Shown here: positions 7,786-44,803 of the stretch, in pieces
Numbering within the stretch: the stretch's first letter is position 1
Layout: each line of letters begins with the position of its first letter
From: Serratia surfactantfaciens
GTDB taxonomy: Bacteria > Pseudomonadota > Gammaproteobacteria > Enterobacterales > Enterobacteriaceae
Length of the DNA: 64,000 nucleotides
Direction: 5' to 3'
Assembly (NCBI RefSeq): GCF_001642805.2
Contig: NZ_CP016948.1
Coordinates: forward strand, 1,178,001-1,242,000
Position numbers and translations under genes: made by a program
The notes under the pieces: generated by a model
The model's database searches: none
Seen by the model: the letters and a program-made list of their open reading frames with translations, nothing else
What the model was told of the DNA's origin: nothing

Positions 7786-8370
7786 ATGATGAAGAAGATG
7801 TTTTCTGTTGCAATCATGGCGGCTGCGGTCGCTGCGCCTACGGCTTTCGCTGAAGATAATTCCGCCGGTGGCGTCATTAACTTTACCGGTGCCATTACCG
7901 ACACCACCTGTACCATCAACGGCGGCAAAAGTGCGGATTTCACCGTAGCGCTGAGCCCGATCTCGGTGACCGATGCCGGTAACGCCGTTGGGCCAATCAC
8001 CAAGAACAAAAAGTCCTTCTCGCTGACCTTCTCCGGCTGTTCGCCGGCGGCCGGCACGGCAGGCACCCCGCTGAAAATTTACTTCTCCTCCGCGGATAAC
8101 ATTTCCACTGACGGCAAATATTTGCTGAACAACTCGGTCAACGAGAACGACGCTTCCGTCGCGAAGAACGTGGGCTTCTCTCTGGCGGAAACCGGTTCTT
8201 CTACGCCGATCCAACTGAACGTGCCGTATGTCACCGACATCATGGGCGACAAAACGGCGCCGGATTCGGAAACCCTGACGCTGGATGCGTACTACTACAA
8301 AACCAACGCCGAAGCGGCAAAAGTGGGCGCTCTGAGCTCCAACGTGACTTACACCATTTCTTACCTGTAA
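7786..8370 (+). CDS. Fimbrial major subunit (pilin)
   Basis: A 194-residue type-1-like pilin. A signal peptide (about residues 1-23, ending TAFA) is followed by a mature domain with the paired cysteines of the pilin immunoglobulin-like fold (DTTCTING and FSGCSPA) and a C-terminal beta strand ending VTYTISYL, the donor-strand-type terminus with penultimate aromatic. First gene of a four-gene chaperone-usher operon, where the most abundant subunit is usually placed. The upstream 180 bp would hold the promoter. Confidence 0.9.
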   Translation: MMKKMFSVAIMAAAVAAPTAFAEDNSAGGVINFTGAITDTTCTINGGKSADFTVALSPISVTDAGNAVGPITKNKKSFSLTFSGCSPAAGTAGTPLKIYFSSADNISTDGKYLLNNSVNENDASVAKNVGFSLAETGSSTPIQLNVPYVTDIMGDKTAPDSETLTLDAYYYKTNAEAAKVGALSSNVTYTISYL

Positions 8371-29915: not shown

Positions 29916-30470
29916 CTATGAATGGTTGTGCGGCATGACCTCGCTGGCGGTTTTGATGGCGCGCAACATGCGGCGGCGTATCAACCCGCTGACCAGGCGA
30001 ATGGTATACCAGTAGGGAGTAAACCGCCGCCGGCTGGCGTCGTCGGGACAGAAGATGCGCGTTTCCGTCTCCAGACGGCAACGGCCGTCCGGCAGCGGGC
30101 TCACGGCATAGCCCAGCGCCAGTTTGGCGACGCCGGGCTGCGCGAAGGCCAGAAATTCCGGCCCGTCAGCGATCTGTTTCAGGCCGTATTCGGCCTGCCA
30201 AAAGCGGCCGATCAGGCCATAGACCAACGCGCCTTCATCTTGCTCGAGCAGGCAAAAGTTATGCAGGCCAAACGGCGGCGGGCTGGGTTTATTGCGTGGC
30301 ATCAGACGCGCGGGCAATTCGCGCAGCGCTATCATGCTGCGGAAAAAGCGATCGTGCTTGGGATCGTAAGCGGCCACGGCCGCCAGGACCCGGGCCTGCG
30401 GCGCGGCGATGGCGATCGCGTGCCGCTCCGAGAACTGGTATTGCCCAAGGTATTTATTCAGCAGCTTCAT
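29916..30470 (-). CDS. Hypothetical protein, possibly DUF2867-like
   Basis: A 184-residue soluble protein without signal peptide or membrane helix. It reads as a compact START-like or SRPBCC-like fold: an N-terminal segment FSERHAIAIAAPQARVLAAV, then FFRSMIALRELPARLM, and strands ending LETETRIFCPDDASRRRF. I do not recognise a function. The ATG at 30470 lies inside the end of the GNAT gene (17-bp overlap), so the two are translated from one mRNA. Confidence 0.72.
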   Translation of the reverse strand: MKLLNKYLGQYQFSERHAIAIAAPQARVLAAVAAYDPKHDRFFRSMIALRELPARLMPRNKPSPPPFGLHNFCLLEQDEGALVYGLIGRFWQAEYGLKQIADGPEFLAFAQPGVAKLALGYAVSPLPDGRCRLETETRIFCPDDASRRRFTPYWYTIRLVSGLIRRRMLRAIKTASEVMPHNHS

Positions 30471-31020
30471 GTTTTGCAGCTTCCCGCCATTCGCTTTGCA
30501 GCAGAGCGAAGCCGAATTCGTCGCCCCATGCGCCTTTGAAAAACACGTTTTGCCGCCAACAGGCTTCACGACGAAAACCCAGCTTGCTGAACAGCGCGGC
30601 GGCGCGAAGATTTCGCGCGTCCACCACGGCGGTAATGCGGTGCTTCGCCAGCGGCCCGAACAGCAGGGCGATGGCGGCGCTCAGCGCCTCGCGCGCCTGA
30701 CCTTGCCGCTGATGAGCGGGATCGAAGGTCACGCCCAGCTCTGCCTGGCGTCCCTCATCGAAAAAATGCACTGCGACATCGCCCAGCAAGGTGCCGTCCT
30801 CGCGGCGTTCGACCGCCAGTTGAAACCAGCTGTCGTCGCGGTTGAAGGGGAGCTGCTGCTGCTGTTCGAAGAAGGCCTGGGCGTCCGCCGCGTTGTAGTC
30901 GCTCCAGCTCTGGTAGCGCGCCACGTCGGGATGATTGCGGTAAGCGGTAAAATGGGGCAGATCGTCGGCCGTGAACGGGCGCAGGATCAGCCTGGGGGTC
31001 AACAGAGGCAAATGGCGCAT
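30454..31020 (-). CDS. GNAT-family N-acetyltransferase (RimJ/RimL-like)
   Basis: A 188-residue acetyltransferase of the Acetyltransf_3 type. The N-terminal LTPRLILRPFTADDLPHF and the acetyl-CoA loop region DPAHQRQGQAREALSAAIAL (Q-x-x-G-x-A/G) are clear, followed by RITAVVDARNLRAAALFSKLGF. The ATG at 31020 has GGAAAAA upstream. It overlaps the downstream hypothetical gene. The substrate is unknown. Confidence 0.9.
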   Translation of the reverse strand: MRHLPLLTPRLILRPFTADDLPHFTAYRNHPDVARYQSWSDYNAADAQAFFEQQQQLPFNRDDSWFQLAVERREDGTLLGDVAVHFFDEGRQAELGVTFDPAHQRQGQAREALSAAIALLFGPLAKHRITAVVDARNLRAAALFSKLGFRREACWRQNVFFKGAWGDEFGFALLQSEWREAAKHEAAE

Positions 31021-31144: not shown

Positions 31145-31864
31145 TTAACGCCGGGCGGCCGCCTGGCGCAGGCGCTCGACCGGCGCTTGTTGAAAGTCGA
31201 ACGATGGCGCTTCGCGCTGCGTCAGCCCCTGGCGCACGATGGCCTTGACGGCCAGGCTGGCGTCACGGTCTTTCCCGGCGATCTGCTCGGCGATGCGCAA
31301 CGCTTCTTCCCGGGCCGAACTTGCGCTGATGCGGGAAATGGCGCCGTGTGACAACGCTTCCTGTGCGCTGACGGTTCTGCCGGTCAGCAGCCAATCCAGC
31401 GCCACGTAGGGCGAAACTCGCGTCGGCAAGCGGGCGCATCCTCCCTGGGCGGCGACTAACCCAAGCCCGGTCTCGGGAAAGCTGAAGCGCGCATCGCACC
31501 CGGCGACGATCAGATCGCACGCCAGCGCCAGCTCAAAGCCGCCGCCGTAGGCGATACCGTCAACGGCGGCGATGATCACCTTGCCGATCTGCGCATGGAT
31601 CAACCCGCCAAATCCCTCCGGCGTGACGATGGGCAGTTCGCCCTGACGAAAGGCGTTAACATCCATGCCGGCGGAAAATACCGTCGGTTGACCGGCCAGG
31701 ACGATAGCGCGCACCGAGTCGTCGCTGTCCGCCTGGCGCAGGTAGGTGCGGATCAGTTCGGCCATCTGCAGGTTGATGGCGTTCTTTTTTTCCGGCCGAT
31801 TGAGGGTGATGACCGCAACCTGCGCGCCGTGGCGCTCATAAAGCACCGGCGGTGATTCACTCAT
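31145..31864 (-). CDS. Enoyl-CoA hydratase/isomerase (crotonase) of the ALAS-like cluster
   Basis: A 239-residue crotonase. The CoA-binding LNRPEKKNAIN and oxyanion-hole segments are present. Both acid-base glutamates expected of a hydratase are visible (the E in GGGFELALACDL and the E in FSFPETGLGL). It would interconvert 3-hydroxyacyl-CoA and 2-enoyl-CoA. Last gene of the five-gene operon, overlapping the MFS gene by 8 bp. PaaF-like dicarboxylyl specificity is inferred from the neighbours and not visible in the protein itself. Confidence 0.9.
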   Translation of the reverse strand: MSESPPVLYERHGAQVAVITLNRPEKKNAINLQMAELIRTYLRQADSDDSVRAIVLAGQPTVFSAGMDVNAFRQGELPIVTPEGFGGLIHAQIGKVIIAAVDGIAYGGGFELALACDLIVAGCDARFSFPETGLGLVAAQGGCARLPTRVSPYVALDWLLTGRTVSAQEALSHGAISRISASSAREEALRIAEQIAGKDRDASLAVKAIVRQGLTQREAPSFDFQQAPVERLRQAAARR

Positions 31865-33029
31865 CGATGGCCTCTCCCCGGAAAAAGAACAGCGTCAGCA
31901 GCAGGGCGATGGCGCCGAGCGGCAGCGAAAACAGCGGCAGATAATAGGCCGGCAGCGCGTAGAGCGTCAGGCCGCCCAGCATGCCGCCCGCCGCGATGCC
32001 GGCGTACAGCACCGAGCTGTTGAGCGACACGGTCAAGGCGCCAAAGCGTTTCGACAGCGATAACAAGTGGTGCTGGATCGGCACCAGATACATCCAGCCG
32101 GTGATACCCCAGACCAGAAAGATGACCAGCACCCACCAGGGCGAGGTGACATAAAAGGCCAGCAGAAACAGGGACAGCGTCTGGATCGCCACGGAAAACA
32201 GCAGCACGAATTTGCTGCCGAGGGCGTCGGTCAGCGCGCCGGAGGCAAAATTGCCGATCACCGCGCCAATGCCGAATACCAGCAGCGCGAGGGGCAGGAT
32301 CGCCTCCGGGCCGAACTGGGTGTTTTTCAATAATACGCTGACGTAGCTGTAGACGATGTGCTCCGAGCAAACGGCAAAGAAGGTGATCAGCAGCGTGGTC
32401 AGCACCGCCTTTTGCCGCAGCGGGGCGAGCCGCTCTTTCAGCGAATGCTTGCCCGGCGGCGCAATGGCGCGCAGCGCCAGCGAAAGACCGAGCAGCGCAA
32501 TCACTCCCAGCAGGGCGATGAACAGGAAGATTTCGCGCCAGCCGATCAGTTTGGCGAGAAAGGTGCCGAACGGGATGCCGAGCGCGATGGCTAGCGTCAT
32601 GCCGCCATAAACGATGGAAATGGCCAGGCCGCGGCGTTTTTCCGTCACCAACCCCACCGCGGCGGCGGCGGCCTGCGGCGTATAGCAGGCCGCGCCCAAT
32701 GCCGCCAACACTCTGCCGAACGAGATCTGCAGGTAGCTGGTGGCCCAGGCGCAGGCCAGATTGCCGGCGATGAACAGCACCAGCGCCAACTGCAGAATAT
32801 GCTTGCGGTTGACGTTGCCCAGCAGCCAGGCGGTCAGCGGCGCGAACAGCATATAAGCCAGCGCGAATACCGATATCAACTGCCCCGCTTGCGCGGGGCT
32901 GACGGCAAAGGTTTCGGAAATGTCGCTGAGCACGCCGGCGACGATAAAGGCGTCGGTGCCGATGGCGAAGGTGCCGGTCGCCATCAAACAGAGCGTGACC
33001 AGATGGCCGTTATAATCCGCTAACTTCAT
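31857..33029 (-). CDS. MFS exporter of the ALAS-like cluster
   Basis: A 390-residue, 12-helix transporter of the DHA1 (AraJ/YdhP-like) group. The N-terminal ATGTFAIGTDAFIVAGVLSD and the motif A/motif C-like segments (LGNVNRKHILQLAL; AISIVYGGMTLAIALGIPFG) suggest an exporter. The ATG at 33029 overlaps the synthase stop by 4 bp (ATGA), so translation is coupled. Placement within the biosynthetic operon suggests that it exports the product. Confidence 0.88.
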   Translation of the reverse strand: MKLADYNGHLVTLCLMATGTFAIGTDAFIVAGVLSDISETFAVSPAQAGQLISVFALAYMLFAPLTAWLLGNVNRKHILQLALVLFIAGNLACAWATSYLQISFGRVLAALGAACYTPQAAAAAVGLVTEKRRGLAISIVYGGMTLAIALGIPFGTFLAKLIGWREIFLFIALLGVIALLGLSLALRAIAPPGKHSLKERLAPLRQKAVLTTLLITFFAVCSEHIVYSYVSVLLKNTQFGPEAILPLALLVFGIGAVIGNFASGALTDALGSKFVLLFSVAIQTLSLFLLAFYVTSPWWVLVIFLVWGITGWMYLVPIQHHLLSLSKRFGALTVSLNSSVLYAGIAAGGMLGGLTLYALPAYYLPLFSLPLGAIALLLTLFFFRGEAIDE

Positions 33030-34237
33030 CCCGCCCTCCGCAGATCGTTCGCCGCCCAAACCTGTCCCAGCGCCGCCAGAAACGTTTCCACGTCGGCATG
33101 GGAGTGCGCCGAGGTCGGCGTCACCCGCAGCCGCTCGCTGCCGGCGGGCACCGTCGGGGCATTGACCGGCTGCACGTAGATATCATGCTCGTCGAGCAGC
33201 ACCTGACTGATGTGCTTGTTGCGGTGCGGATCGCCGACCAACAGCGGCAGGATGTGGCTGTCGGCCGATACCAGCGGGATGCCGGCGGCGCGCAGGCCGG
33301 TTTTTAGGTGATCGACGATCGCCAGCAGGTGCTTGCGCTGGGTGTCATGCTCGAGGTTGTATTTGAAACTGGCCAACGCCGCAGCGACCACCGGCGCCGG
33401 TGACGAGGTGCTGAACACGAATGCCGGCGCCCAGCTGCGCACCGCCTCCACCACCGAGCGGGGCGCGGCGATATAACCGCCCGCTGCGCCGTAAGACTTG
33501 CCGAATCCGCCCTGAATAATGGTGATTTTATCCAACAGGCCCAGCTGTTCGGCGTAGCCCAATCCCCGTTCGCCGTACACGCCGGCGGAGTGGATCTCGT
33601 CGAGATAGGTCAGCGCCTGGTACTGTTCCGCCAACGCCACGATCTGTGCCAGGGGAGCAAAGTCACCGTCCATGGAATACAGCGACTCGAAGGCGATCAG
33701 CTTTGGCCGCGCCGGGTCGGCGGCCTGCAGCAGTTCGGCGAGGTGCGCCACGTCGTTGTGGCGGAAGATTTTTTTCTCCGCTTTGCTGTAGCGGATGCCA
33801 TAAATCATCGAGGCGTGATTCAGCTCGTCGGAGAACACGATCAGATCGGGAATGGCGTCGCACAGGGTGGACAAGGTGGCGTCGTTGGCGCCGAAACCGG
33901 TGGTGAACAGCAGCGCCGACTCTTTGCCGTAGGCGCTGGCCAGCAGCGTTTCCAGCTCGCTGTGATAAACCGAGGTGCCGGAAATGCTGCGGGCGCCGCA
34001 GGTGCCCAGCCCGACGCGGTTAACCGCGTCGGTGGTGGCCAGCAGCACCTTGGGATGGTGGCTCATCGCCAGATAGTCGTTTGAGCACCAGACGTTGAGA
34101 CGACGCTCGCCTTGTTGCCCGTGACGGGTGGCCCAGGGTTTGTCCTGCACGCCGCGCTCAAGATTGAGGAACTCGCGAAAGCGCCCCTGTCTTTTGGTTT
34201 CTGCCAGCTTTTCTTCAAGAATGTTCAGTACGCTCAT
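33026..34237 (-). CDS. 5-Aminolevulinate synthase-like alpha-oxoamine synthase
   Basis: A 403-residue PLP enzyme that aligns along its length with bacterial 5-aminolevulinate synthase. It has the PLP lysine (K247 in GGFGKSYG), the DEIH segment (213-216), SDELNHASMI, and PTVPAGSERLR near the end. Such enzymes condense an acyl-CoA with an amino acid and release CO2. Arg21 (GRFR) is kept, but the acyl-pocket motif GTRN of Rhodobacter ALAS is GARS here (A82, S84), both smaller residues. Enterobacteria make haem precursor from glutamyl-tRNA, so this is probably not a housekeeping HemA. It overlaps the exporter gene by 4 bp. Confidence 0.9.
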   Translation of the reverse strand: MSVLNILEEKLAETKRQGRFREFLNLERGVQDKPWATRHGQQGERRLNVWCSNDYLAMSHHPKVLLATTDAVNRVGLGTCGARSISGTSVYHSELETLLASAYGKESALLFTTGFGANDATLSTLCDAIPDLIVFSDELNHASMIYGIRYSKAEKKIFRHNDVAHLAELLQAADPARPKLIAFESLYSMDGDFAPLAQIVALAEQYQALTYLDEIHSAGVYGERGLGYAEQLGLLDKITIIQGGFGKSYGAAGGYIAAPRSVVEAVRSWAPAFVFSTSSPAPVVAAALASFKYNLEHDTQRKHLLAIVDHLKTGLRAAGIPLVSADSHILPLLVGDPHRNKHISQVLLDEHDIYVQPVNAPTVPAGSERLRVTPTSAHSHADVETFLAALGQVWAANDLRRAG

Positions 34238-34252
34238 AGCATATTCCTTGTG

Positions 34253-35464
34253 TTAAACGGCTTTAAGGCTTAATGACAGACCCTGACCGACGCCGACGCA
34301 CATCGTCACCAATGCATTGCCGGCCTGCCGATCGCGTAATTCCAGCGCCGCCGACAGCACCAGACGCGCGCCGGACATCCCCAGCGGATGGCCGAGTGCG
34401 ATGGCACCGCCGTTCGGGTTGACGCGTGCGTCGTTGGCGTCGATGCGCCAGTGTTTCAGCGCCGCCAGCACCTGTGAGGCGAACGCTTCGTTAATCTCGA
34501 TGATGTCGAAGTCGTGCAACGTGAATCCGCCGCGCTGCAGCAAACGCTCGGTGGAGGCGATCGGCCCCAGCCCCATCAGCGCCGGTGCAACGCCGGCGGC
34601 CGCGCTGTCGCCGATCTCCGCCAGCGGTTGCCACCCCTGGCGTTTCACGTAGCGGCCGGAGGCCAGCAGCAGTGCGGCGGCGCCGTCGTTGATGCCGGAA
34701 GCGTTGCCGGCAGTGACCGAGCCGCCGGCGGAGAACGCCGGTTTCAATGCCTGCAGCTGTTGCAGCGTGCTGAGGCGGGGGAATTCATCCTGCGCGAACA
34801 GGCGGGTGGTTTTACGATCGGCCGGCACTTCCACCGGCGTGATCTCCCGCGCCAACCGGCCGCTGTCGATCGCCCTGCGGGCCTTTTGCTGCGAGGCCAG
34901 CGCGAACAGATCTTGTTCCTCACGCGAGATATGCTGTTGTTGGGCCACGTTTTCCGCCGTGATGCCCAGCGGATCGCTGCCGTAGCGTTCCGCCAGACGC
35001 GGGTTAACGAAGCGCCATCCCAGCGTGGTGTCGTACAGCTTTACCCCCTTATCGAACGGCGTTTCGCTTTTGCTCAGCACATAGGGCGCGCGGCTCATGC
35101 TTTCCACGCCGCCGGCCAGGATCAGTTCGCTGAGGCCGCTGCGAATTTTCGCCGCGGCGTAAATCACCGCATCCAATCCGGAGGCGCAAAGGCGGTTGAG
35201 GGTAATGGCCGGCACCGACTGATCCACCCCGGAAAGCAGCGTCGCCATGCGGGCGACGTTGCGATTGTCTTCACCGGCCTGGTTGGCGCAGCCCAGCACC
35301 ACTTCGTCCAGACTCGCCTCTGACGCCGGATGGCGCTGCAGCAGGCTGCGAATGATGGTCGCCGCCATATCGTCGGGGCGGGTCTGCGCCAGGCTGCCGC
35401 CATAGGCGCCGATCGCCGTGCGCGTGCCGTCGATCAGATACACACCGTCATCTTTAATGCTCAT
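34253..35464 (-). CDS. Acetyl-CoA acyltransferase (PaaJ/3-oxoadipyl-CoA thiolase-like)
   Basis: A 403-residue thiolase. The nucleophilic cysteine is in LNRLCASGLDA, the catalytic histidine in NGGAIALGHPLGMSGAR, and the second cysteine in VTMCVGVGQGLS. It resembles PaaJ/PcaF more than FadA: GCANQAGEDNRNVARMATLL and DTTLGWRFVNPRLAE are shared. PaaJ joins or cleaves succinyl-CoA plus acetyl-CoA to and from 3-oxoadipyl-CoA. It lies 15 bp upstream of the synthase gene in the same operon. Confidence 0.92.
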   Translation of the reverse strand: MSIKDDGVYLIDGTRTAIGAYGGSLAQTRPDDMAATIIRSLLQRHPASEASLDEVVLGCANQAGEDNRNVARMATLLSGVDQSVPAITLNRLCASGLDAVIYAAAKIRSGLSELILAGGVESMSRAPYVLSKSETPFDKGVKLYDTTLGWRFVNPRLAERYGSDPLGITAENVAQQQHISREEQDLFALASQQKARRAIDSGRLAREITPVEVPADRKTTRLFAQDEFPRLSTLQQLQALKPAFSAGGSVTAGNASGINDGAAALLLASGRYVKRQGWQPLAEIGDSAAAGVAPALMGLGPIASTERLLQRGGFTLHDFDIIEINEAFASQVLAALKHWRIDANDARVNPNGGAIALGHPLGMSGARLVLSAALELRDRQAGNALVTMCVGVGQGLSLSLKAV

Positions 35465-35473
35465 CGTTGATCC

Positions 35474-37003
35474 TTAAGGCGTGGTGGTCAGCGCCGGTTG
35501 GGCGGCGTGCAGAAGGGTGTAATGCGGCGCATAGCGGGCCGCGTGCAGCAGCTGCGCCAGGTTGCTCAGCGTCGTCCTGACGTTTTTCTCCCCCAGGCGA
35601 GTGAGCCAGCCGAAAATGCCGTCGGCGTAGTTCACGCCGGCGACGGCGGCGACATCGATGTCTTCCCGGCTGCAGACGCCGCTTTCCACCATGATCACCG
35701 ACTCGTTGATCAGGCTGCTGAGGACGCGGGCGACGATCAGCGCCGGGGAGTCCTTGATAAATTCAACCTGCGGAAGCGCGGTGTGCAGCAGGCGCAAAAA
35801 CAACGCCTTATTAGCCGCAGAGGCGTGGCGGCTGTGCGCCGCCACCAGATACGCCGTGTCGGCGTAGTTCAGGGCGACATCGACCACAAAGGCGTCCGCC
35901 GCCGTCTGCTCGGCCAACTGATTTGCCGTGCGGCCATCGGTGACGCTGACGGTGAAAGCGTCATTGACCTGAATGGCCGCTCCCAGGCCCGACAAGGCCG
36001 GCCGCTGTTCCACGCGCAACTGCGGCCATTGCAGTGCGGCTCGCTGTTGCAGCAGGGTAAACAAAGGGTGTTCGCCGTAAATGCGCAGCGTCTCGACATC
36101 CGCCTCGGCGGCGGCCTCAACCGGCGGGGCGGTTTCTTCGGCGGAAAAATAGGAGCGACCGTTCTTTTTCCCCAGCAGCCCGGCATCGACCAGCGAACGC
36201 TGCAGATGGCCGGGGGTATAGCGCGGGTCGTACTGCATGTCCTGCCAAATTTGCCGGCTGACCTGATAGTTGATGTCCTGGCCGATAAAATCGGTCAGCT
36301 CGAGCGGCCCCATGCGAAAGTGTCCGCCGGCCTTGAGGGCGCGGTCGATCTGCGGCGCGCGCGCCACGTGCTCTTCCAACAGGCGAAAGCCTTCCAGGTA
36401 GTAGGGGCGGGCCATACGGTTGACGATGAACCCCGGCGTAGCCTGGCAGACGACATCGCGTTTCCCCAATGCCGCCACCAGTTGGCGGCAACGTTCAGTG
36501 GTGGCTTGGGTGGTAAAGTAGGCCGGAATGATTTCAATCAGCTTCATTAGCGGTGCGGGATTGAAAAAGTGCAAACCGATAAAGCGTTCGCTGTGGGTCA
36601 CCGCCGTTGCCAGCTTATTGAGCGACAATGAGGAAGTATTGGTGGCGATCAGCGTGTCGGGTTTGACCGCCGCAGCGATGGCGGCCAGCACCTCGAGTTT
36701 GGCTTGCTCTTGCTCGGCGATAGTTTCGAGCACCAAATCGCTGTCGACGATAGCTTCAAACACCGATGAGAACTGCAGATTGGCCAGCACCGCGTCTTTA
36801 TCCTGCGGCGCGAGCCTGCCCTGTTCGACCTTTTTGTCCAGGTCTTGCACGATATATTCACGAGCCTGAATGAGGGTATTGCCGTTGCGATTATAAAGCA
36901 CCGTACGAATGCCTTTTTGCGCGAAAAGATAAGCGATGCCTCTGCCCATCGTTCCCGCGCCGATAATCGCAGCCGATTGAATTGCCGCATTACGTTCTGC
37001 CAT
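35474..37003 (-). CDS. 3-Hydroxyacyl-CoA dehydrogenase (PaaH-like)
   Basis: A 509-residue two-part dehydrogenase. The NAD site is AAIIGAGTMGRGIAYLF, the catalytic His lies in IGLHFFNPAPLMKL, and ATPGFIVNRMARPYY and GPLELTDFIGQDINYQ follow. The C-terminal repeat (about residues 415-490) matches PaaH, which acts on 3-hydroxyadipyl-CoA. It would interconvert 3-oxo- and 3-hydroxyacyl-CoA. First gene of the operon, nine bp before the thiolase, and divergent from the LuxR-type regulator. Confidence 0.92.
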   Translation of the reverse strand: MAERNAAIQSAAIIGAGTMGRGIAYLFAQKGIRTVLYNRNGNTLIQAREYIVQDLDKKVEQGRLAPQDKDAVLANLQFSSVFEAIVDSDLVLETIAEQEQAKLEVLAAIAAAVKPDTLIATNTSSLSLNKLATAVTHSERFIGLHFFNPAPLMKLIEIIPAYFTTQATTERCRQLVAALGKRDVVCQATPGFIVNRMARPYYLEGFRLLEEHVARAPQIDRALKAGGHFRMGPLELTDFIGQDINYQVSRQIWQDMQYDPRYTPGHLQRSLVDAGLLGKKNGRSYFSAEETAPPVEAAAEADVETLRIYGEHPLFTLLQQRAALQWPQLRVEQRPALSGLGAAIQVNDAFTVSVTDGRTANQLAEQTAADAFVVDVALNYADTAYLVAAHSRHASAANKALFLRLLHTALPQVEFIKDSPALIVARVLSSLINESVIMVESGVCSREDIDVAAVAGVNYADGIFGWLTRLGEKNVRTTLSNLAQLLHAARYAPHYTLLHAAQPALTTTP

Positions 37004-37350
37004 AGAAAATCCCCGTCACTGTATGCCATGCGAAATTCGCAAATGCTTATTATCTCTTTGGATTTACGGCGGCACCGGGTGCCTGTGAGGAAAGTAATTG
37101 GCGGTGTGTTGGCTGTCTAACGGTAAAAATGACAGGTTTACGCGCTGGAGGGTTTATGCTATTCGCGTAGTTTTCCCGTGTAGCGTAATAAAAAGGCGTA
37201 TTCTGAGGCCAATAAACGGGAGAATAGCTTTTTTCGTTATAGCCTTGGTATTTTTTATTATATGAAACGGCTACTGACGCCAGGCGGCGATATCCTATAG
37301 TGAGTCTGACCTATCGATAAATCGGCATCGCTATCTGGAGAACTCGCGTT
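37004..37350. other. Divergent promoter region of the ALAS-like cluster
   Basis: About 350 bp between the first biosynthetic gene and the LuxR-type gene, with an AT-rich middle (37190-37265). An imperfect dyad CCTATCGATAAATCGG at 37310-37325 (10 of 16 positions symmetric) is the only lux-box-like feature and is weak. No gene is seen. Confidence 0.45.
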
Positions 37351-38067
37351 ATGGATACCCGCACTCAACGGCTCATGGCGGAGGTGATTGGCAGCTTAAC
37401 CGATCGCGAACGTTTTCTGACGCAGCTGGGGCCCTGCGCCGAGGCGTTGGGGTTTGATTACTTCTCCTACATCGTTTTTTCCTGCTACCCGGCCAGCCGG
37501 CCCAAAATGCTGATCGAGGGGAATATCCCTGCGAGCTATCTCGAGGAATATCGGCGGCAGCGGGCCTATTTGCAGGATCCGGTCATCGAGCGCGCCCACC
37601 ATTCCACGCTGCAGTTTCAGTGGGACGAAAGCTTTTATCACCAGTGGCCGGCGATGTGGCGGCGTATGGCGCAGTTTGGCCTGTGTACCGGTTGGTCGCA
37701 GTCGGTCAAGGATTGCTATGGTCGCCTCGGGATCCTGACTTTTGCCGGCAAGACGCTGCCGCAGCAAACGCCGCAAGCGCGCGCGGCCAACGAAACGTTT
37801 TTCCTTTGGCTGGCGCAAACCGCCCACAAAACGCTGCGTGAAGCGTTGATATCGGTGAACGACGAAGCGATAAAAGATGTGCTGACGCTGCGCGAGAAAG
37901 ATATCTTGCGCTGGTGCAGCGAAGGGAAAACGGCGGAAGAGATCGCGTTGCTGATGGGGGTGAGCGAACGCACGATCAACTTCCATATCGGCAACTCGAT
38001 TAAAAAGCTTTCTGTCGCCAATAAGACCGCGGCCACCGCCAAAGCGGTTTATTTACAGCTGATTTAA
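37351..38067 (+). CDS. LuxR-type quorum-sensing-like regulator without adjacent luxI
   Basis: A 238-residue protein with an autoinducer-binding domain (about residues 15-160) and a LuxR helix-turn-helix (about residues 175-235; LTLREKDILRWCSEGKTAEE, ERTINFHIGNSIKKL). Among the ligand-pocket positions known from TraR, Tyr61, Asp70, Pro71 and Trp85 have counterparts (Y67, D76, P77, W91), but Trp57 is replaced by Tyr63. No luxI is in the window, so it is an orphan or solo here. Its divergent position suggests that it controls the five-gene operon, possibly in response to the product. Confidence 0.9.
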   Translation: MDTRTQRLMAEVIGSLTDRERFLTQLGPCAEALGFDYFSYIVFSCYPASRPKMLIEGNIPASYLEEYRRQRAYLQDPVIERAHHSTLQFQWDESFYHQWPAMWRRMAQFGLCTGWSQSVKDCYGRLGILTFAGKTLPQQTPQARAANETFFLWLAQTAHKTLREALISVNDEAIKDVLTLREKDILRWCSEGKTAEEIALLMGVSERTINFHIGNSIKKLSVANKTAATAKAVYLQLI

Positions 38068-38846: not shown

Positions 38847-39530
38847 ATGCCATTAGAGGCCAACGGGATCATTAAGGGCGATCGAGGTGCCGAACCGGGC
38901 AAGTGGCAGCATACGCCCACTACGCCGTCAGTGACATTAACCTGGCACCACACCATTCCCTGGAATTGCCTGCGCGCGGTATGGAATGGTTTAGTGGCGG
39001 GAGAACATTGGGAGGCGCTGGCAGAGTATATGCAGTTGATCAGTGTGCCAAATTACGCGGGCGTGCTTCAGCAGATTAAAGATAAAAATGTGCATGACCG
39101 CGATGGACTGCACACGCTGGTGACCTGGCAAGGATGGAATATTGTTGAAGGGCCGGGCAGCGAATATCGCCAGCAAGGGGATGATCCCGGGGAGAAGTAT
39201 GAGCATTGGTCCGGCAAAGGGATGAGCGGCAACCAACTTTCGACGCTGCAACAGGTTAACGTGCTCAATCTTTGCATGGCGCCGTTCGCCGCCTGCGCGC
39301 TGGATCCGGCCACCAATGCGCCGGAGATCAAGCGGGCAGAGGCGGAGCACCTGCGGCGAGTGATTAAGCAGGTCAGGCCCACGTTGAAAGGCAAAGCCCC
39401 GATGCTGTGGAAAGAGAGCATGTGGCATAACGTGCAGCAGGGCAAGGTGGATAAAAAGAATGTCGGCAAATGGGCGACAAAACCGATCTGGCGTCGGCGT
39501 TTGCATACCGATTTAGTCCAGACCGGTTGA
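38847..39530 (+). CDS. Orphan protein with WHH nuclease-like motif
   Basis: A 227-residue protein that I do not recognise as a whole. Residues 31-40 read LTWHHTIPWN, which resembles the conserved WHH/HHxIP element of the HNH/Endonuclease VII toxin superfamily, and further His, Asp and Glu residues follow (NVHDRDGLH; EKYEHW). There is no signal peptide, repeat or delivery domain. It stands alone between the stress protein and the hydroxyproline locus, with no obvious immunity gene beside it. The nuclease assignment rests on one short motif and is tentative. Confidence 0.72.
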   Translation: MPLEANGIIKGDRGAEPGKWQHTPTTPSVTLTWHHTIPWNCLRAVWNGLVAGEHWEALAEYMQLISVPNYAGVLQQIKDKNVHDRDGLHTLVTWQGWNIVEGPGSEYRQQGDDPGEKYEHWSGKGMSGNQLSTLQQVNVLNLCMAPFAACALDPATNAPEIKRAEAEHLRRVIKQVRPTLKGKAPMLWKESMWHNVQQGKVDKKNVGKWATKPIWRRRLHTDLVQTG

Positions 39531-39576: not shown

Positions 39577-40590
39577 TTATTGGCACAGTGCCGCTATTTC
39601 ATCGTACAGCGTTGCGGGAATCGCTACCCCCGACTGCTCGCTTTGTCTGCGACGCTGATAGCGCCGTTCGCCGGGGATGCGTGCGCCTTGCGCCTGCATC
39701 TCGGCAAACATTGTTTCCGCCGCGGCGAAATACGTCTCCTTATCCGCACCGAGAAAACGTTCGGGATCCAATGCGATGATCAACTCACCGCCGTAAGGCG
39801 ACGAACCGGTGCCGCCGTCATAAGCCAGCGATTCCTTGCTGGTCATATCGCCGATCAGCGGGCCGGCCAGCAGTTCCACCATCGCCGCCAGCGCCGAGCC
39901 TTTATGTCCGCCGAAGGTCAGCATTGCGCCCTCCAACACGCTGGCGGCGTCGGTGGAGGGGTTGCCTGCTTTATCAATGCCCCAGCCTTCGGGTAACGGG
40001 GTGCCGGCGCGGCGATGCAGCTCGATTTCGCCGCGCGCCGCCGCGCTGGTGGCCATGTCGAACAGAAACGGCGGCCGCTGCGAGCGCGGCCAGCCGAAGG
40101 CGATGGGATTGGTGCCGAATAGCGGGCGAGAGCCGCCGGCCGGTGTCACCCAGGCGTGGCTGGGCGTGCAGGCCAGGGCCACCAACCCCTGTTCGGTCAG
40201 CGGTTCGATGTCGGCCCACAGCGCAGAGAAATGCACGCAGCGATTGATCGCCAGGGCGGCAATGCCGTTGGCGCGTACCTTATCGATAAAGGCCGGCAGC
40301 GCGGTGCGGTAAGCCAACAGCGAAAAGGCGCCGCCGGCGTCGACCCGCAAGATGGCCGGCGCCTGGTCGACCAACCTGGGCTGGGCATCGGCGGAGACTT
40401 TGCCCGCCTGCAGTGAGCGCACGCAGCCCAACAGCCGATACAGCCCGTGCGAAGCGCAGCCGTCGCGTTCGCCTTGCGTGACATTTTGCGCTACCGCTTC
40501 GGCGTGAGCCTGATTGAAGCCGTTGCTGCGCAGCGCGCGCAATGCCAGTTGATAAGCCTGTTCCAGCGACAGAACGTGCATGGATGTCAT
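39577..40590 (-). CDS. Malate/L-lactate dehydrogenase-like oxidoreductase (pyrroline-2-carboxylate reductase type)
   Basis: A 337-residue NAD(P)-dependent Ldh_2 family enzyme (YiaK/DpkA/LhpD fold). Family motifs include ASHGLYRL, PLFGTNPIAFGWPR and TFGGHKGSALAAMVELL. In hydroxyproline loci the matching enzyme reduces delta-1-pyrroline-2-carboxylate to L-proline, which is the likely reaction here. I chose the ATG at 40590 after GGAGGAG; an in-frame start 44 codons upstream would overlap the permease. Last gene of the minus-strand arm. Confidence 0.85.
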   Translation of the reverse strand: MTSMHVLSLEQAYQLALRALRSNGFNQAHAEAVAQNVTQGERDGCASHGLYRLLGCVRSLQAGKVSADAQPRLVDQAPAILRVDAGGAFSLLAYRTALPAFIDKVRANGIAALAINRCVHFSALWADIEPLTEQGLVALACTPSHAWVTPAGGSRPLFGTNPIAFGWPRSQRPPFLFDMATSAAARGEIELHRRAGTPLPEGWGIDKAGNPSTDAASVLEGAMLTFGGHKGSALAAMVELLAGPLIGDMTSKESLAYDGGTGSSPYGGELIIALDPERFLGADKETYFAAAETMFAEMQAQGARIPGERRYQRRRQSEQSGVAIPATLYDEIAALCQ

Positions 40591-40609
40591 CTTGATCTCC
40601 TCCCTGGGG

Positions 40610-42175
40610 TCACTCTTCTTCATCGCCGATAAAATTGGCCTGGGGTAAACAGGTATAGGCGCCCCAGTAGTAAATCGCCAGCGCGATCGCCGCCATGGTG
40701 AGGGTGTCCCACGGGTGGGCAATGGCGCCGATGCCGCCGAAGCTGCTGAGATAGGAAAGCGCGATCACCAGCGCATAGAAGACGATCAGCCACAGCGAGG
40801 ACCTGATTTGTTGCCTGAGACTAACGGCGTGGGTCGGCACCTGATTCTTGAACAGGATGTAGATGAAGAACATCAGGATCTGCAAACCGAGCAGCCAGGA
40901 AACGGTATCCCAGCCGGACCAGAAAACGATCAGCGCCGAAATGATAAATGACAGCGGGCCGAGTACGCAGAAACCGCGCACCCTGAACGGACGCGGCATA
41001 TCGGGCGCATTGCGCCGCAGCCCGGCGGCGGTGACCGGCGCGATGGCGTAGCTCAGCACCAGCGCGGCGGACACCACGCCGATCAGTTTTTCCCACGACG
41101 GGAACGGCAGCGTCCAGAATACCGAGAGGGCGAAGGTCAGCCACAGCGCCGGGCGCGGGATGCCGGACTCGCCATCCACCCGGGTGAATAGCTTGAAGAA
41201 GGTGCCGGCGCGTGCCCAACCGTAGATCACGCGAGGCGTGGCGTTCATGTAGATGTTGCCGGTGCCGCTCGGCGAAACGATCGCGTCGCTGACCACCAAA
41301 AACGCCAGCCATCCCATGCCCAACGTGATGGCGATATCGCGGAACGGCAGGGAGAACTGTTGGCTGATGCCGGCCCAGCCGCCGCTCAGCATCTCGCTGG
41401 GGATACTGCCGAGAAAGGCTATCTGCAGCAGCACATAGATGATGGTGGACAACACGACCGACAGGATCAGCGCGATGGGGATGGTGCGCTGCGGTTTTTG
41501 CACCTCGCTGGCGACCGAGATGATCGGCGTCAGACCGAGGTAGGCGAAGATGATGCCGCCGGCGGAAATGGCGGCTTCAACCCCGGCGGAGCCGAAGGGG
41601 GCAAAGCCCTGGCTGTGCAGGTTTTCCGGTTTGAAGAAGCCGAACAGCACCACGATCACCAACAGCGGCACCAGAAACTTCAGCACGCTGATCAGGTTAT
41701 TGGATTTGGCGAAGGTTTTGACGCTGTAGTAGTTGAGCGCGAAGAAAAAGCACAGCAGCGCCAGCTGCACCAGCCAGCCGATCGGCGTCGGGTCGCCGGA
41801 ACCCGGCTGGCTGAGGAACGGAAACCAGGCGGCGGCGTACTGTCGGGCGGCGACGACTTCGATGGCAATGAGGCTGGAGAAGGCGATCAACGTAATAAAC
41901 CCCAGCAGATAACCCATCAACTCGCCGTGCGAGAACACCGGATAGCGAATGATGCCGCCGGCGCGCGGCAGGGCTGCGCCGAGCTCGCAGTAGACGATGC
42001 CGAGCAGCAACACCGCCAGGCCGCCGATCAGCCAGGAATAGATGCCGGCAGGGCCGGCGATGGAGGAGACATGGCTGGCGGCGAACAGCCAGCCGGAGCC
42101 GAAGATGGCGCCCAGACCGATGAACGTCAGATCGGTGAGCGTAAGCTGCTTCTTGAATTTGCCTTGGGTTGTCAT
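40610..42175 (-). CDS. APC-family amino-acid permease (probable hydroxyproline/proline uptake)
   Basis: A 521-residue, 12-helix or larger APC permease. The first helix region LTDLTFIGLGAIFGSGWLFA has the glycine-rich substrate motif, and PLVIVVLFGFFKP and GIPRPALWLTFALSVFWTL mark later helices. The position between the semialdehyde dehydrogenase and the reductase indicates uptake of the pathway substrate. Specificity is inferred from context only. Confidence 0.87.
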   Translation of the reverse strand: MTTQGKFKKQLTLTDLTFIGLGAIFGSGWLFAASHVSSIAGPAGIYSWLIGGLAVLLLGIVYCELGAALPRAGGIIRYPVFSHGELMGYLLGFITLIAFSSLIAIEVVAARQYAAAWFPFLSQPGSGDPTPIGWLVQLALLCFFFALNYYSVKTFAKSNNLISVLKFLVPLLVIVVLFGFFKPENLHSQGFAPFGSAGVEAAISAGGIIFAYLGLTPIISVASEVQKPQRTIPIALILSVVLSTIIYVLLQIAFLGSIPSEMLSGGWAGISQQFSLPFRDIAITLGMGWLAFLVVSDAIVSPSGTGNIYMNATPRVIYGWARAGTFFKLFTRVDGESGIPRPALWLTFALSVFWTLPFPSWEKLIGVVSAALVLSYAIAPVTAAGLRRNAPDMPRPFRVRGFCVLGPLSFIISALIVFWSGWDTVSWLLGLQILMFFIYILFKNQVPTHAVSLRQQIRSSLWLIVFYALVIALSYLSSFGGIGAIAHPWDTLTMAAIALAIYYWGAYTCLPQANFIGDEEE

Positions 42176-42190
42176 GGTGTGACCCTTTTG

Positions 42191-43828
42191 TTATTGGCAG
42201 ATGCGGCCGGGCTGGTGTTGGGCAGGTGAAACTATGGGATCTCGGGTATAAACGCCGTTCACCAGCCGCAGCAGGTTGAGCGGGTTAGCGTCCTGCAGCG
42301 GCGGCGGCAACAGCGCCGCGGGGGTGTTTTGCAGACAGATCGGCCGCAGAAAACGCTCGATGGCCAACGTGCCTACCGAGGTGCCGCGCGCGTCGCTGGT
42401 CGCCGGGTAAGGGCCGCCGTGCACCATGGCGTCGCACACCTCTACCCCGGTCGGGTAGCCGTTGAACAGCACCCGACCGGCTTTGCGCGTCAGCAATGTC
42501 GTCAGCCCGGCTGCCATGTCGAGATCGCCGTCATCCGCCAGCAGCGTGGCGGTTAACTGGCCTTGCAAGGCCGCCAGCGTCGCATGCAGCTGCGCTTCGT
42601 TATCCACCGCCACCAGAATGCTGACCGGGCCGAATACCTCCTGTTGCAGCAGCGGGTCGGCCTGCAGCAGCAACGCGCCCTCGGCCCGATACAGCTGCGC
42701 CGCTGCCCGATGAGGAGGCGTTTCGCTTCGGCCCGCCAGACGCCGCATGCCCGGGTGCGCATCGAGGGCCGCCAGCCCGTGGCGGTAGTGCTCCAGCGTG
42801 CCGGCATTCAGCATTGGCTGCGGTTCGGCGGCGTTGACCAGGGCACTCATCGTTTCGATCAACTGTTCGAAGGCGGCGCCGCGCAGCGCGACGATCACGC
42901 CGGGCTTGGTGCAGAACTGACCGCAGCCGAGTGTGAAGGAAGAGACCAGTTCCTGCGCGATGCGTTGGCCGCGCCGCGCCAGCGCCTGCGGCAGGATAAC
43001 CACCGGGTTGATGCTCGACATTTCGGCGAAGACCGGGATCGGCTGAGGGCGTTGCATGGCCAGATCGAACAACGCCCGACCGCCTTGCAACGAGCCGGTG
43101 AATCCCACCGCCTGAATCGCCGGATGCTGTACCAGGCCGGCCCCCACGCGGTTGCCGAAGATCATGTTGAAGACGCCGGCGGGCATGCCCGTGCGTTGCC
43201 GCGCGCGCTCGATCGCCTGAGCGGTCAGCTCAGCGGTGATCATATGGCCGCTGTGCGCCTTGAACACGACCGGGCAACCGGCGGCGAGCGCGGCGGCGGT
43301 GTCGCCGCCCGCGGTGGAAAAGGCCAGCGGGAAGTTGCTGGCGCCGAACACCGCCACCGGACCGAGTGCCGTGCGATATTGGCGCAGGTCGGGACGCGGC
43401 AGGGGGGAGCGCTGCGGCAATGCGCAGTCGATGCGCACACCTTCGACGTCGCCGCGCCGTAGCAGCGTGGCGAACAGCCGCATCTGGCCGCTGGTTCTGG
43501 CGCGCTCGCCGCTCAACCGCGCCGGCGGCAGGGCGGTCTCCTGCGTGGCGAAGGCGAAGAAGGCCTCATCCAAGGCATCCAGCTCCTCGGCGATGGCGTC
43601 GAGAAAGTTCGCGCGCCGCTCGGCGCTGAGTTGCGAATAAGGCGCAAAGGCTGCTGAGGCGGCTTCGGCGGCGGCAGCGATTTCCTCCGCCGTAGCCTGA
43701 TGGAAACGGTAGCCGGTCGGCTGACCGTCTTCGGCGCGCAGGCTCAGCAGCACCGCTTCTTCCGCCGCGCGGCGCTGGCCGCCGATAAAGTGTTGGCCGC
43801 TGATGGCGGCGTAGCGATCGTTGGGCAT
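42191..43828 (-). CDS. Alpha-ketoglutarate semialdehyde dehydrogenase
   Basis: A 545-residue aldehyde dehydrogenase of the long NADP-type found in hydroxyproline and aldarate pathways. The catalytic cysteine is in TLGCGQFCTKPGV, the general-base Glu in VFAEMSSINP, and the cofactor loop region in AVGFTGSLQGGRAL. It oxidises 2,5-dioxopentanoate to 2-oxoglutarate, the last pathway step. I chose the ATG at 43828 (MPNDRYAAISGQ) as the family-like start. It lies between the deaminase and permease genes. Confidence 0.92.
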   Translation of the reverse strand: MPNDRYAAISGQHFIGGQRRAAEEAVLLSLRAEDGQPTGYRFHQATAEEIAAAAEAASAAFAPYSQLSAERRANFLDAIAEELDALDEAFFAFATQETALPPARLSGERARTSGQMRLFATLLRRGDVEGVRIDCALPQRSPLPRPDLRQYRTALGPVAVFGASNFPLAFSTAGGDTAAALAAGCPVVFKAHSGHMITAELTAQAIERARQRTGMPAGVFNMIFGNRVGAGLVQHPAIQAVGFTGSLQGGRALFDLAMQRPQPIPVFAEMSSINPVVILPQALARRGQRIAQELVSSFTLGCGQFCTKPGVIVALRGAAFEQLIETMSALVNAAEPQPMLNAGTLEHYRHGLAALDAHPGMRRLAGRSETPPHRAAAQLYRAEGALLLQADPLLQQEVFGPVSILVAVDNEAQLHATLAALQGQLTATLLADDGDLDMAAGLTTLLTRKAGRVLFNGYPTGVEVCDAMVHGGPYPATSDARGTSVGTLAIERFLRPICLQNTPAALLPPPLQDANPLNLLRLVNGVYTRDPIVSPAQHQPGRICQ

Positions 43829-43882
43829 CGGTACCCCCGGTAGAAAAAGAGTGACGCCCGACATGGCCGGGCGGTGAAGGCG

Positions 43883-44803
43883 TTACAGACCGACGTTCGG
43901 CAGCGCGGGGCGGGTGGCCAGCGCTTTATCGATCACGGCGTTGATTTCGGTGAGCGTTTCCCCCTGCAGCGCCAGGCGCGGTGGGCGAGTGACGGCGCTG
44001 CCGCGGCCGACCCGTTGTTCACACAGCTTGATGCACTGCACCAGATCGGGGCGGGCATCGAGATGCAGCAGCGGCATGAACCAGCTGTACAGCGCCAACG
44101 CCTCCTCATAGCGTTTTTCCTTCGCCAGACGGAACAGGGTTTCCCCTTCGCGCGGGAAGGCGTTGGACATGCCTGAGATCCAGCCTTGTGCGCCAACGGC
44201 GATGCTCTCCAGCACCACGTCGTCCAACCCGGCGAACAGCACGAAGCGATCGCCGACTGCGTTGCGCAGATCGATAAAGCGGCGTGTGTCGCCGGACGAG
44301 TCTTTGAAACACACGATGTTCTCGCAGTCGACCAGCGAGGTCAGGATGTCGGGCGTGACGTCGTTCTTGTAAATCGGCGGGTTGTTGTAGACCATGATCG
44401 GCAGATCGGTCGCGCCGGCGACGCTGCGGAAGTGCGCGGCGGTTTCGTGCGGCTTGGCGGAATAGACCAGCGCCGGCATTACCATAATGCCGTCGACGCC
44501 GGCCTTTTGCGCTTCGCGCGCCATGTTCTGCGCGAAGGCGGTGGTGAACTCGGCGATGCCGGCGATCACCGGCACTTTGCCGTCGGCGGCGTCTCTGGCC
44601 ACTTCGATCACCGCCAGCTTTTCCTGCACCGTCATCGAGGTGTTTTCACCGACGGTGCCGCATACCACCAGGCCGGAGACGCCGTCGCGCACCAGGTTTT
44701 TGATCACCGTATGGGTAGCGTCGAGATCCAGAGTGAAATCGTTGCGAAACTGGGTCGTCACCGCCGGGAATACGCCGCTCCAGCTTAGGGTTTTATGGCT
44801 CAT
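43883..44803 (-). CDS. DapA-superfamily delta-1-pyrroline-4-hydroxy-2-carboxylate deaminase
   Basis: A 306-residue TIM-barrel enzyme of the DHDPS/N-acetylneuraminate lyase family. The Schiff-base lysine is in NIVCFKDSSGD, the tyrosine motif is YNNPPIY, and the GTVGENTSM loop is near the N-terminus. In this locus it should deaminate pyrroline-4-hydroxy-2-carboxylate to alpha-ketoglutarate semialdehyde rather than make lysine precursors. First gene of the minus-strand catabolic arm. Confidence 0.9.
   Translation of the reverse strand: MSHKTLSWSGVFPAVTTQFRNDFTLDLDATHTVIKNLVRDGVSGLVVCGTVGENTSMTVQEKLAVIEVARDAADGKVPVIAGIAEFTTAFAQNMAREAQKAGVDGIMVMPALVYSAKPHETAAHFRSVAGATDLPIMVYNNPPIYKNDVTPDILTSLVDCENIVCFKDSSGDTRRFIDLRNAVGDRFVLFAGLDDVVLESIAVGAQGWISGMSNAFPREGETLFRLAKEKRYEEALALYSWFMPLLHLDARPDLVQCIKLCEQRVGRGSAVTRPPRLALQGETLTEINAVIDKALATRPALPNVGL

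What the first reader, a model, noticed from the sequence alone, without database searches (positions are those of the whole stretch)
31145..37003. Five-gene operon joining PaaH/PaaJ/crotonase enzymes to an ALAS-like synthase and an exporter
Seen: a dehydrogenase, thiolase, ALAS-like alpha-oxoamine synthase, MFS exporter and crotonase are packed with gaps of 9 and 15 bp and overlaps of 4 and 8 bp, so one transcript is near certain. Known: PaaJ and PaaH act on six-carbon dicarboxylyl-CoAs (succinyl-CoA + acetyl-CoA to and from 3-oxoadipyl-CoA, then 3-hydroxyadipyl-CoA); ALAS condenses a dicarboxylyl-CoA with glycine; enterobacteria normally make haem precursor by the glutamyl-tRNA route. Inference: the set runs beta-oxidation enzymes in the synthetic direction to build an elongated dicarboxylyl-CoA (oxo, hydroxy or enoyl), which the synthase turns into an aminoketone that is exported. 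No enoyl-CoA reductase, acyl-CoA ligase or NRPS is nearby. I know no described pathway with this gene set.
Basis: partly seen in the sequence, partly recalled or inferred. Interest (0 to 1): 0.87.

Follow-up and report, generated by a model that had tools for sequence, protein, structure and literature searches.

The report
Serratia aminoketone operon with retained exporter
A five-gene operon found in many Serratia species and on two rhizobial plasmids probably builds a small aminoketone from central-metabolism building blocks and pumps it out, and relatives that have lost the building genes often keep the pump and its regulator, as if still protecting themselves from the product.

Summary
In detail: HAD, thiolase, ALAS-like synthase (AOS), MFS and crotonase genes form one tight operon beside a divergent LuxR-type gene. 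All five, in this order, are in 18 of 30 Serratia genomes; R. gallicum carries the same order with one insertion on a plasmid, R. etli a damaged copy. The AOS passes the ALAS profile (514.6 bits vs 338.55), but its clade lacks residues nearly invariant in ALAS relatives (T83A, N85S, Y/F363A). A separate GtrR and two true PcaF/PaaJ lie elsewhere. New here: of 9 examined genomes that lost the synthetic genes, 7 keep a full-length MFS with LuxR, through at least four, probably five, separate losses. In three that share one loss, both genes are still under purifying selection. Best reading: a dedicated small-molecule pathway whose exporter also protects. Direction, substrates, product and toxicity are inferred. 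No matching cluster appeared in the listings of four paper searches.

The parts
35474..37003 (-). 3-hydroxyacyl-CoA dehydrogenase (PaaH-like, 509 aa), first gene of the operon
   Evidence: (PRK08268 430.5 bits, cut-off 508; PaaH 373.7, cut-off 669.4); present in 18 Serratia loci
34253..35464 (-). thiolase, nearest to 3-oxoadipyl-CoA thiolase (403 aa)
   Evidence: PcaF 533.5 bits, cut-off 597; third-best PcaF match of the genome; 64% identical to the R. gallicum copy
33026..34237 (-). ALAS-like alpha-oxoamine synthase (403 aa) with altered active site: A82, S84, A360 (R. capsulatus ALAS 83, 85, 363)
31857..33029 (-). MFS exporter (390 aa), Cmx/CmrA-like; start placed at ATG 33029 by comparison with orthologues
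   Evidence: full-length in 7 of 9 examined genomes that lost the synthetic genes
31145..31864 (-). crotonase / enoyl-CoA hydratase family protein (239 aa)
   Evidence: (PRK08252 200.2 bits, cut-off 282)
37351..38067 (+). LuxR-type regulator with autoinducer-binding domain, divergent; found wherever the MFS is kept in the loci examined
   Evidence: (Autoind_bind 100.2 bits)
37115..37138 (-). 24-bp motif AACCTGTCAYTTYTACCGTTAGAC in the shared promoter region, invariant in 10 of 10 intact copies apart from the two Y positions; one site in the genome at up to 3 mismatches; candidate regulator site

Best explanation
A dedicated small-molecule operon with built-in self-protection. Inferred chemistry: the thiolase joins acetyl-CoA to succinyl-CoA (3-oxoadipyl-CoA), the dehydrogenase reduces it to 3-hydroxyadipyl-CoA, the crotonase dehydrates it to 2,3-didehydroadipyl-CoA, and the alpha-oxoamine synthase condenses that dicarboxylyl-CoA, with loss of CO2, with a small amino acid. 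I favour L-alanine or L-serine over glycine, because the residue that faces the amino-acid side chain is Ala instead of Thr. The product would be a water-soluble, unsaturated alpha-aminoketone acid (or a spontaneous ring or dimer of it), exported by the MFS. The divergent LuxR protein controls the exporter and probably the operon. Shown by sequence: gene set, order, conservation, distinct AOS clade, repeated loss of the synthetic genes with retention of MFS and LuxR. Inferred: direction, substrates, product, toxicity of the product, role and ligand of LuxR.
For: Conserved block: 18 of 30 Serratia genomes carry all five genes in order; the R. gallicum IE4872 plasmid carries HAD-thiolase-AOS-MFS-(CMD/AhpD-like)-ECH. 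AOS clade support 0.997, apart from 71 ALAS relatives. T83 is kept in 75 of 76 relatives and N85 in 76 of 76; the clade has A and S in 29 of 29 rows covering these positions (with repeats removed 20 distinct loci). The residue equivalent to 83 affects amino-acid scope in another AOS, where V79A and V79G widen it (PMC11906848 passages). 3-oxoadipyl-CoA thiolase, 3-hydroxyadipyl-CoA dehydrogenase and 2,3-dehydroadipyl-CoA hydratase, with a thioesterase, gave trans-2-hexenedioic acid in engineered C. glutamicum (PMC8336102 abstract): the acyl unit expected here without an enoyl reductase. Self-protection: 7 of 9 examined losers keep MFS and LuxR while genes on both sides of the MFS are deleted or decayed; MFS pN/pS 0.256 (p=5e-10) and LuxR 0.064 (p=3e-16) between G162 and G159, which share one deletion scar.
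Against: No substrate, product or phenotype was tested. The AOS still passes the ALAS cut-off and keeps Arg21 and Thr365, recalled as succinyl-carboxylate ligands, so succinyl-CoA itself could be its substrate. In the engineered AOS, V79A also uses glycine and V79T used only L-Ala, so the residue at 83 alone does not fix the amino acid. The three beta-oxidation enzymes fall below the PaaJ/PaaH/PaaF cut-offs. HAD and ECH evolve fastest in the operon, and the Rhizobium HAD and ECH are only 41% and 33% identical. MFS retention may reflect a broader efflux role or later recombination. 2 of 9 examined losers lost the MFS too. MFS omega is higher in some losers (pairs with G151 up to 0.27) than in producers (mean 0.063).
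Confidence: 0.5

Rival explanations
1. The AOS makes a signal rather than a toxin: an alpha-aminoketone (or derived pyrazine or hydroxyketone), analogous to CqsA/LqsA products, exported by the MFS and sensed by the divergent LuxR protein. Losers keep exporter and receptor to eavesdrop.
For: Divergent LuxR with autoinducer-binding domain, present beside the MFS in 7 of 7 losers that keep the MFS; CqsA-type synthases are relatives in the same superfamily.
Against: AOS is far below the autoinducer-synthase cut-off (167.8 vs 428 bits). An exporter is not expected to outlive its signal synthase unless it protects. Three CoA enzymes are an expensive route to a signal.
Confidence: 0.2
2. Plain accessory ALAS: succinyl-CoA plus glycine to 5-aminolevulinate, with the beta-oxidation enzymes feeding succinyl-CoA and the MFS exporting ALA.
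For: AOS passes TIGR01821 (514.6 vs 338.55 bits); Arg21, Thr365 and the PLP lysine are conserved.
Against: Residues invariant or nearly so in 76 ALAS relatives are changed in the whole clade (T83A, N85S, I361V, Y/F363A). Glutamyl-tRNA reductase is present. Succinyl-CoA is a central metabolite and needs no dedicated thiolase set (general knowledge).
Confidence: 0.12
3. Catabolic operon for a dicarboxylate or aromatic, with the AOS a bystander.
For: Family resemblance to PaaJ/PaaH/PaaF.
Against: No ligase, oxygenase or acyl-CoA dehydrogenase among the five genes; MFS nearest to an efflux family; AOS is the most constrained gene of the operon (omega 0.034); two bona fide PcaF/PaaJ exist elsewhere; 7 of 9 examined losers keep the MFS without the enzymes.
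Confidence: 0.06
4. MFS and LuxR are a separately useful drug-efflux pair that happens to sit in the operon, so their retention says nothing about the product.
For: MFS resembles Cmx/CmrA efflux proteins (191.4 bits, below the 400 cut-off); higher MFS omega in some losers fits a changed role.
Against: The MFS also sits between AOS and the ECH side in Rhizobium; no homologue at E <= 1e-110 in 392 sampled family genomes outside Serratia and G145, and none at 60% identity or more on 72,556 plasmids.
Confidence: 0.2

Closest known systems
Dynaplanin (dynVWXYZ) and ketomemicin type clusters with a stand-alone PLP C-acyltransferase (PMC9239090: outline, three Results sections and part 1 of 2 of the Discussion read)
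   Same: Small non-NRPS/PKS cluster built round a stand-alone alpha-oxoamine synthase that joins an acyl-CoA to an amino acid; the dyn cluster was missed by the usual genome-mining tools.
   Different: dynY, an N-acyltransferase, is required for dynaplanin; here no acyltransferase is in the operon but a three-enzyme CoA set and an exporter are.
Alaremycin pathway (inhibitor of PBG synthase: PMC12670364 passages; ALAS-like synthase and serine use recalled; the 2025 pathway paper is not held)
   Same: ALAS-family enzyme turned to an antibiotic (recalled); a Streptomyces relative (L074) has Ser at 83 and at 363 and has MFS and GNAT neighbours.
   Different: Here no N-acetyltransferase in the operon and an added thiolase-HAD-crotonase set; different residues (Ala83, Ser85, Ala363).
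C5N-forming ALAS of manumycin-type clusters (PMC4525017 seen in search listing only; pathway details recalled)
   Same: Second ALAS in an organism for secondary metabolism.
   Different: No acyl-CoA ligase or amide synthase among the five genes.
Reverse beta-oxidation to adipate (PMC8336102, abstract and section list seen)
   Same: The same three enzyme types in the synthetic direction give trans-2-hexenedioic acid.
   Different: Engineered, ends in a free acid; here the CoA ester would be trapped by an AOS.
Orphan immunity genes in Serratia (Rhs/T6SS; PMC10539506, start of abstract in search listing only)
   Same: Protection gene kept without its cognate weapon.
   Different: Protein effector and immunity protein there; exporter and small molecule inferred here.

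Membership tests
5-aminolevulinate synthase (ALAS) | TIGR01821 curated score | tested here: met
   514.6 bits vs 338.55
5-aminolevulinate synthase (ALAS) | Thr83, Asn85, Tyr/Phe363 (R. capsulatus numbering) | tested here: not met
   Ala, Ser, Ala in the clade; 75/76, 76/76 and 75/76 of ALAS relatives keep the ALAS residues
5-aminolevulinate synthase (ALAS) | PLP lysine, Arg21, Thr365 | tested here: met
   K247 and R21 invariant in the 8-sequence alignment; T362 aligns with Thr365. Roles of Arg21 and Thr365 recalled
[quoted passage not shown]
   needs enzyme assay
3-oxoadipyl-CoA thiolase PcaF/PaaJ | TIGR02430 curated score | tested here: not met
   533.5 vs 597; two other loci of the genome pass with 705.2 and 690.3
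PaaH | TIGR02279 curated score | tested here: not met
   373.7 vs 669.4
PaaF | NF007239 curated score | tested here: not met
   136.9 vs 371
CqsA/LqsA-type autoinducer synthase | NF005526 curated score | tested here: not met
   167.8 vs 428
Dynaplanin/alaremycin-type AOS cluster | N-acyltransferase in the cluster | tested here: not met
   no such gene in the five-gene block; the GNAT at 30454-31020 was matched beside the operon in 4 of 9 named Serratia loci, not in the other 5
Self-protection gene of a biosynthetic operon | Kept under purifying selection after loss of the biosynthetic genes | tested here: met
   7 of 9 examined losers keep it, 2 do not
Self-protection gene of a biosynthetic operon | Deletion sensitises a producer to its own product | not testable with these tools
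   needs experiment

The most novel reading that the evidence does not exclude
A new class of antimetabolite made by trapping a reverse-beta-oxidation intermediate: a 2,3-didehydroadipyl (or 3-oxo/3-hydroxyadipyl) unit joined to L-alanine or L-serine by an ALAS-derived synthase. It would be exported by a LuxR-controlled MFS that also serves as immunity, so that Serratia populations split into producers, immune non-producers and sensitive strains, with the same weapon also carried on rhizobial plasmids.
Probability: 0.3. Interest if true: 0.8.

Novelty: new variant of a known kind. Interest (0 to 1): 0.63.

Why it matters
It gives a compact, testable case of primary-metabolism enzyme types recombined into a small-molecule pathway without the NRPS, PKS or ligase genes that genome mining looks for. 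The repeated loss of synthesis with retention of exporter and regulator is a natural experiment on producers and immune non-producers in a common environmental genus, and it predicts which gene protects. If the product exists it would also show how an ALAS can be re-aimed at other acyl and amino-acid substrates. A pangenome study lists an ALAS term among the functions of insect-associated S. marcescens genes (PMC10656689, one passage); that it refers to this gene is my inference.

Tried and rejected
Rejected or made unlikely: (1) haem role of the AOS, because GtrR is present and active-site residues differ. (2) Plain PaaJ/PaaH/PaaF identity, by curated cut-offs. (3) Presence in E. coli: no match of the operon DNA in 20,395 records with megablast, which sees only close DNA. 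(4) A canonical lux box in the promoter: ACCTGT is conserved but I saw no partner half at lux-box spacing (by eye, consensus recalled).

Led nowhere: the LuxI search of the own genome found nothing, but no control genome rang either, so absence is not shown. A search of 385 alphaproteobacterial genomes with the R. gallicum AOS found nothing at E <= 1e-145, without a positive control. Gammaproteobacteria (369 genomes) gave only the own locus; the phylum sample (398 genomes) gave the own locus and five ALAS of 50-52% identity. Passages of PMC7272653, PMC8892079 and PMC6073955 did not name the residues that hold the succinyl group. The permease row was discarded because one copy was mis-extended. 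Row L109 duplicates L011, so the 76 ALAS relatives hold at least one repeat. The 30 clade rows include 9 named loci that are the same places as 9 of the 18 genus loci (coordinates), so they are 21 distinct loci, 20 of which cover positions 83 and 85. G151 and G145 were left out of the promoter alignment. The LuxR gene of G145 could be read over 183 residues only, because the locus ends there. No structure was predicted.
Full report
OBSERVATION. One search lists the five ORFs on the - strand at the stated coordinates. Gaps and overlaps (9, 15, -4, -8 bp) hold if the MFS starts at ATG 33029, the start used by its orthologues. Family scans give a 3-hydroxyacyl-CoA dehydrogenase, a thiolase, an ALAS/AOS enzyme, an MFS efflux-type transporter and a crotonase; a divergent LuxR-type gene with an autoinducer-binding domain lies at 37351-38067. 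The window is G000:C1:1178001-1242000; its best AOS matches in a named collection are Serratia.

NOT CHANCE. Of 30 genomes of the genus, 18 have the AOS at 92% identity or more; in all 18 the fetched 4.2-kb stretch shows HAD, thiolase, AOS, MFS and crotonase in this order, the outer two genes in part. In the 9 named Serratia loci with longer flanks (the same places as 9 of the 18) the LuxR gene is also in place, 9 of 9. In a scan of a collection of 84,980 species genomes, 460 stretches encoded a relative and the best 80 were kept: 9 are Serratia (92-99%) and the other 71 are at most 52% identical. Samples of 149 family genomes, 369 of the class and 398 of the phylum gave no other full copy. 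Among 72,556 plasmid records, two have an AOS at 60-80% identity: R. gallicum pRgalIE4872c (L086), with HAD-thiolase-AOS-MFS-CMD-ECH, and R. etli bv. mimosae pRetMIM1e (L087), where only a thiolase end and no HAD match is left in front of the AOS, with a transposase gene annotated further upstream. Identities of the R. gallicum proteins to Serratia: thiolase 64%, AOS 69%, MFS 52%, HAD 41%, ECH 33%. The R. gallicum ECH carries an extra C-terminal 3HCDH_N-like part, and a CMD-family gene is inserted after the MFS.

ENZYMES. The thiolase (533.5 bits, cut-off 597), HAD (373.7, cut-off 669.4) and crotonase (136.9 to PaaF, cut-off 371) are relatives of, not members of, the PcaF/PaaJ, PaaH and PaaF equivalogs. 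The genome holds two genuine PcaF/PaaJ (705.2 and 690.3 bits) elsewhere, so the operon's thiolase is a third, diverged paralogue. The AOS passes the ALAS cut-off, but 17 positions separate the clade from its ALAS relatives by the criterion. Four lie in motifs near the substrates: R. capsulatus T83 (75 of 76 relatives), N85 (76 of 76), I361 (76 of 76) and Y/F363 (75 of 76) are A, S, V and A in the clade. The exception at 83 and 363 is a Streptomyces relative, L074, which has Ser and has GNAT and MFS neighbours; I recall alaremycin synthesis as such a case. None of the 76 relatives' loci shows the operon, though several loci are cut short by contig ends: weak isolated matches were one thiolase, one MFS and four crotonases. 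A tree of 83 sequences puts the 8 clade members together (support 0.997), apart from the 71 ALAS relatives; the relatives were picked by similarity, so the root position is only indicative. In a different AOS, the residue equivalent to 83 lies about 3.5 A from the amino-acid side chain in an overlay model, and its replacement by Ala or Gly widens amino-acid use; against a simple rule, V79A also takes glycine and V79T took only L-Ala (PMC11906848 passages). Haem precursor is covered by glutamyl-tRNA reductase (517.4 bits; hemL was not searched).

DIRECTION AND PRODUCT (inferred). The five genes include no acyl-CoA ligase, acyl-CoA dehydrogenase or enoyl reductase. The same three enzyme types, with a thioesterase and without an enoyl reductase, gave secreted trans-2-hexenedioic acid in an engineered host (PMC8336102 abstract). 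A decarboxylating AOS step, described as irreversible for the family (PMC11906848 passages), would pull such a route. The simplest product is an unsaturated alpha-aminoketone acid. If the AOS takes the 3-oxo intermediate instead, the product could close to a pyrrolinone; I cannot tell these apart.

LOSS PATTERN. Twelve of the 30 genus genomes lack the AOS at the cut-off used. Nine of them, and G145, were searched with the neighbouring Usp gene; 8 genomes gave the site, G172 and G145 gave none, and G173-G175 (reduced genomes of 1.5 to 2.5 Mb) were not searched. At these 8 sites: G162, G159, G025, G151 and G171 keep LuxR and a full-length MFS but show none of the other four genes; G153 keeps LuxR, MFS and scraps of HAD, AOS and ECH; G152 keeps only the end of LuxR; G158 keeps only short scraps. 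In another genus of the family, G145 has a HAD-AOS deletion fusion, intact MFS and LuxR (read over 183 residues, to the end of the locus), and no ECH match beyond about its first 60 bases. So 7 of 9 examined losers keep a full-length MFS with LuxR, and in each of the 7 the genes on both sides of the MFS are deleted or decayed; the other 2 have lost both. In the MFS tree G153 pairs with S. plymuthica (L007), G145 with L008, G171 joins these last two, and G162+G159 lie in the S. marcescens group; the place of G025 is poorly supported. With the different junctions this means at least four, probably five, separate losses. I read the change as loss because the Rhizobium operon has the MFS inside the same gene order and because G153 and G145 show remains.

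SELECTION AFTER LOSS. G162, G159 and G025 share a leader 88-91% identical among them and 46-48% identical to two producers, which I take as unrelated (not tested against shuffles), so they share one deletion. Between G162 and G159 the MFS has pN/pS 0.256 (Fisher p=5.2e-10) and LuxR 0.064 (p=3.0e-16); the other two pairs agree. Producer MFS pairs average omega 0.063 (0.031-0.084), while pairs with a loser range from about 0.04 to 0.27, highest with G151: constrained, in part less tightly. The Fisher test treats sites as independent, and recombination with producers could mimic selection.

REGULATION. In 10 of 10 intact copies a 24-bp motif lies upstream of HAD; its first part, AACCTGT, stays in 5 of 5 aligned losers, G151 and G145 not being aligned. 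The motif occurs once in the genome at up to 3 mismatches, with none for the reversed control. LuxR and MFS are found together in 7 of 9 examined losers and are both lost or broken in the other 2. I infer that LuxR controls the MFS. Its ligand is unknown.

LITERATURE. No paper holding Serratia, aminolevulinate synthase and 3-oxoadipyl-CoA thiolase was found. Six hold Serratia and 5-aminolevulinate synthase; one of them lists an ALAS term among functions of insect-associated S. marcescens genes (PMC10656689, one passage). Searches for stand-alone AOS clusters listed 15 of 12,959 and 20 of 206 papers; these led to dynaplanin, and no title or abstract start among those listed describes a cluster with this gene set. 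The library lacks most subscription papers, and MIBiG and antiSMASH were not available.

VERDICT. The operon is real, conserved, and best read as a small-molecule pathway plus exporter-type self-protection. Membership in ALAS is formal (profile score) but not supported at the active site. Chemistry and biological role remain to be tested.

Noticed in passing
L086:14393-14998: R. gallicum version of the operon has an extra CMD-family 'peroxidase-related' gene (TIGR01926, 154.8 bits vs 81.8) between MFS and ECH, not present between these genes in Serratia.
   Followed up: partly
L087 (R. etli bv. mimosae pRetMIM1e): The damaged copy of the operon sits near type III secretion and nodulation genes on a plasmid typed as conjugative.
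   Followed up: partly
L074:7274-11194: Streptomyces sp. CT34 ALAS-like gene with Ser at positions 83 and 363 beside MFS and GNAT genes; looks like an alaremycin-type cluster (recalled).
   Followed up: partly
38847-39530 (+): 227-aa ORF with no Pfam match, 67-68% identical in three named Serratia loci, 40% over part of it in a fourth and not matched in five others: a variable neighbour of the LuxR/Usp genes.
   Followed up: no
39577-44803: Adjacent set of Ldh_2 oxidoreductase, amino-acid permease, aldehyde dehydrogenase and DHDPS-family genes; looks like hydroxyproline-type catabolism (recalled), separate from the finding.
   Followed up: no
5001-8000: Low-GC stretch (0.45-0.47 in the 2-kb windows, against 0.55-0.59 on either side) near a tRNA-Ser gene at 4708-4795; possible island.
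   Followed up: no
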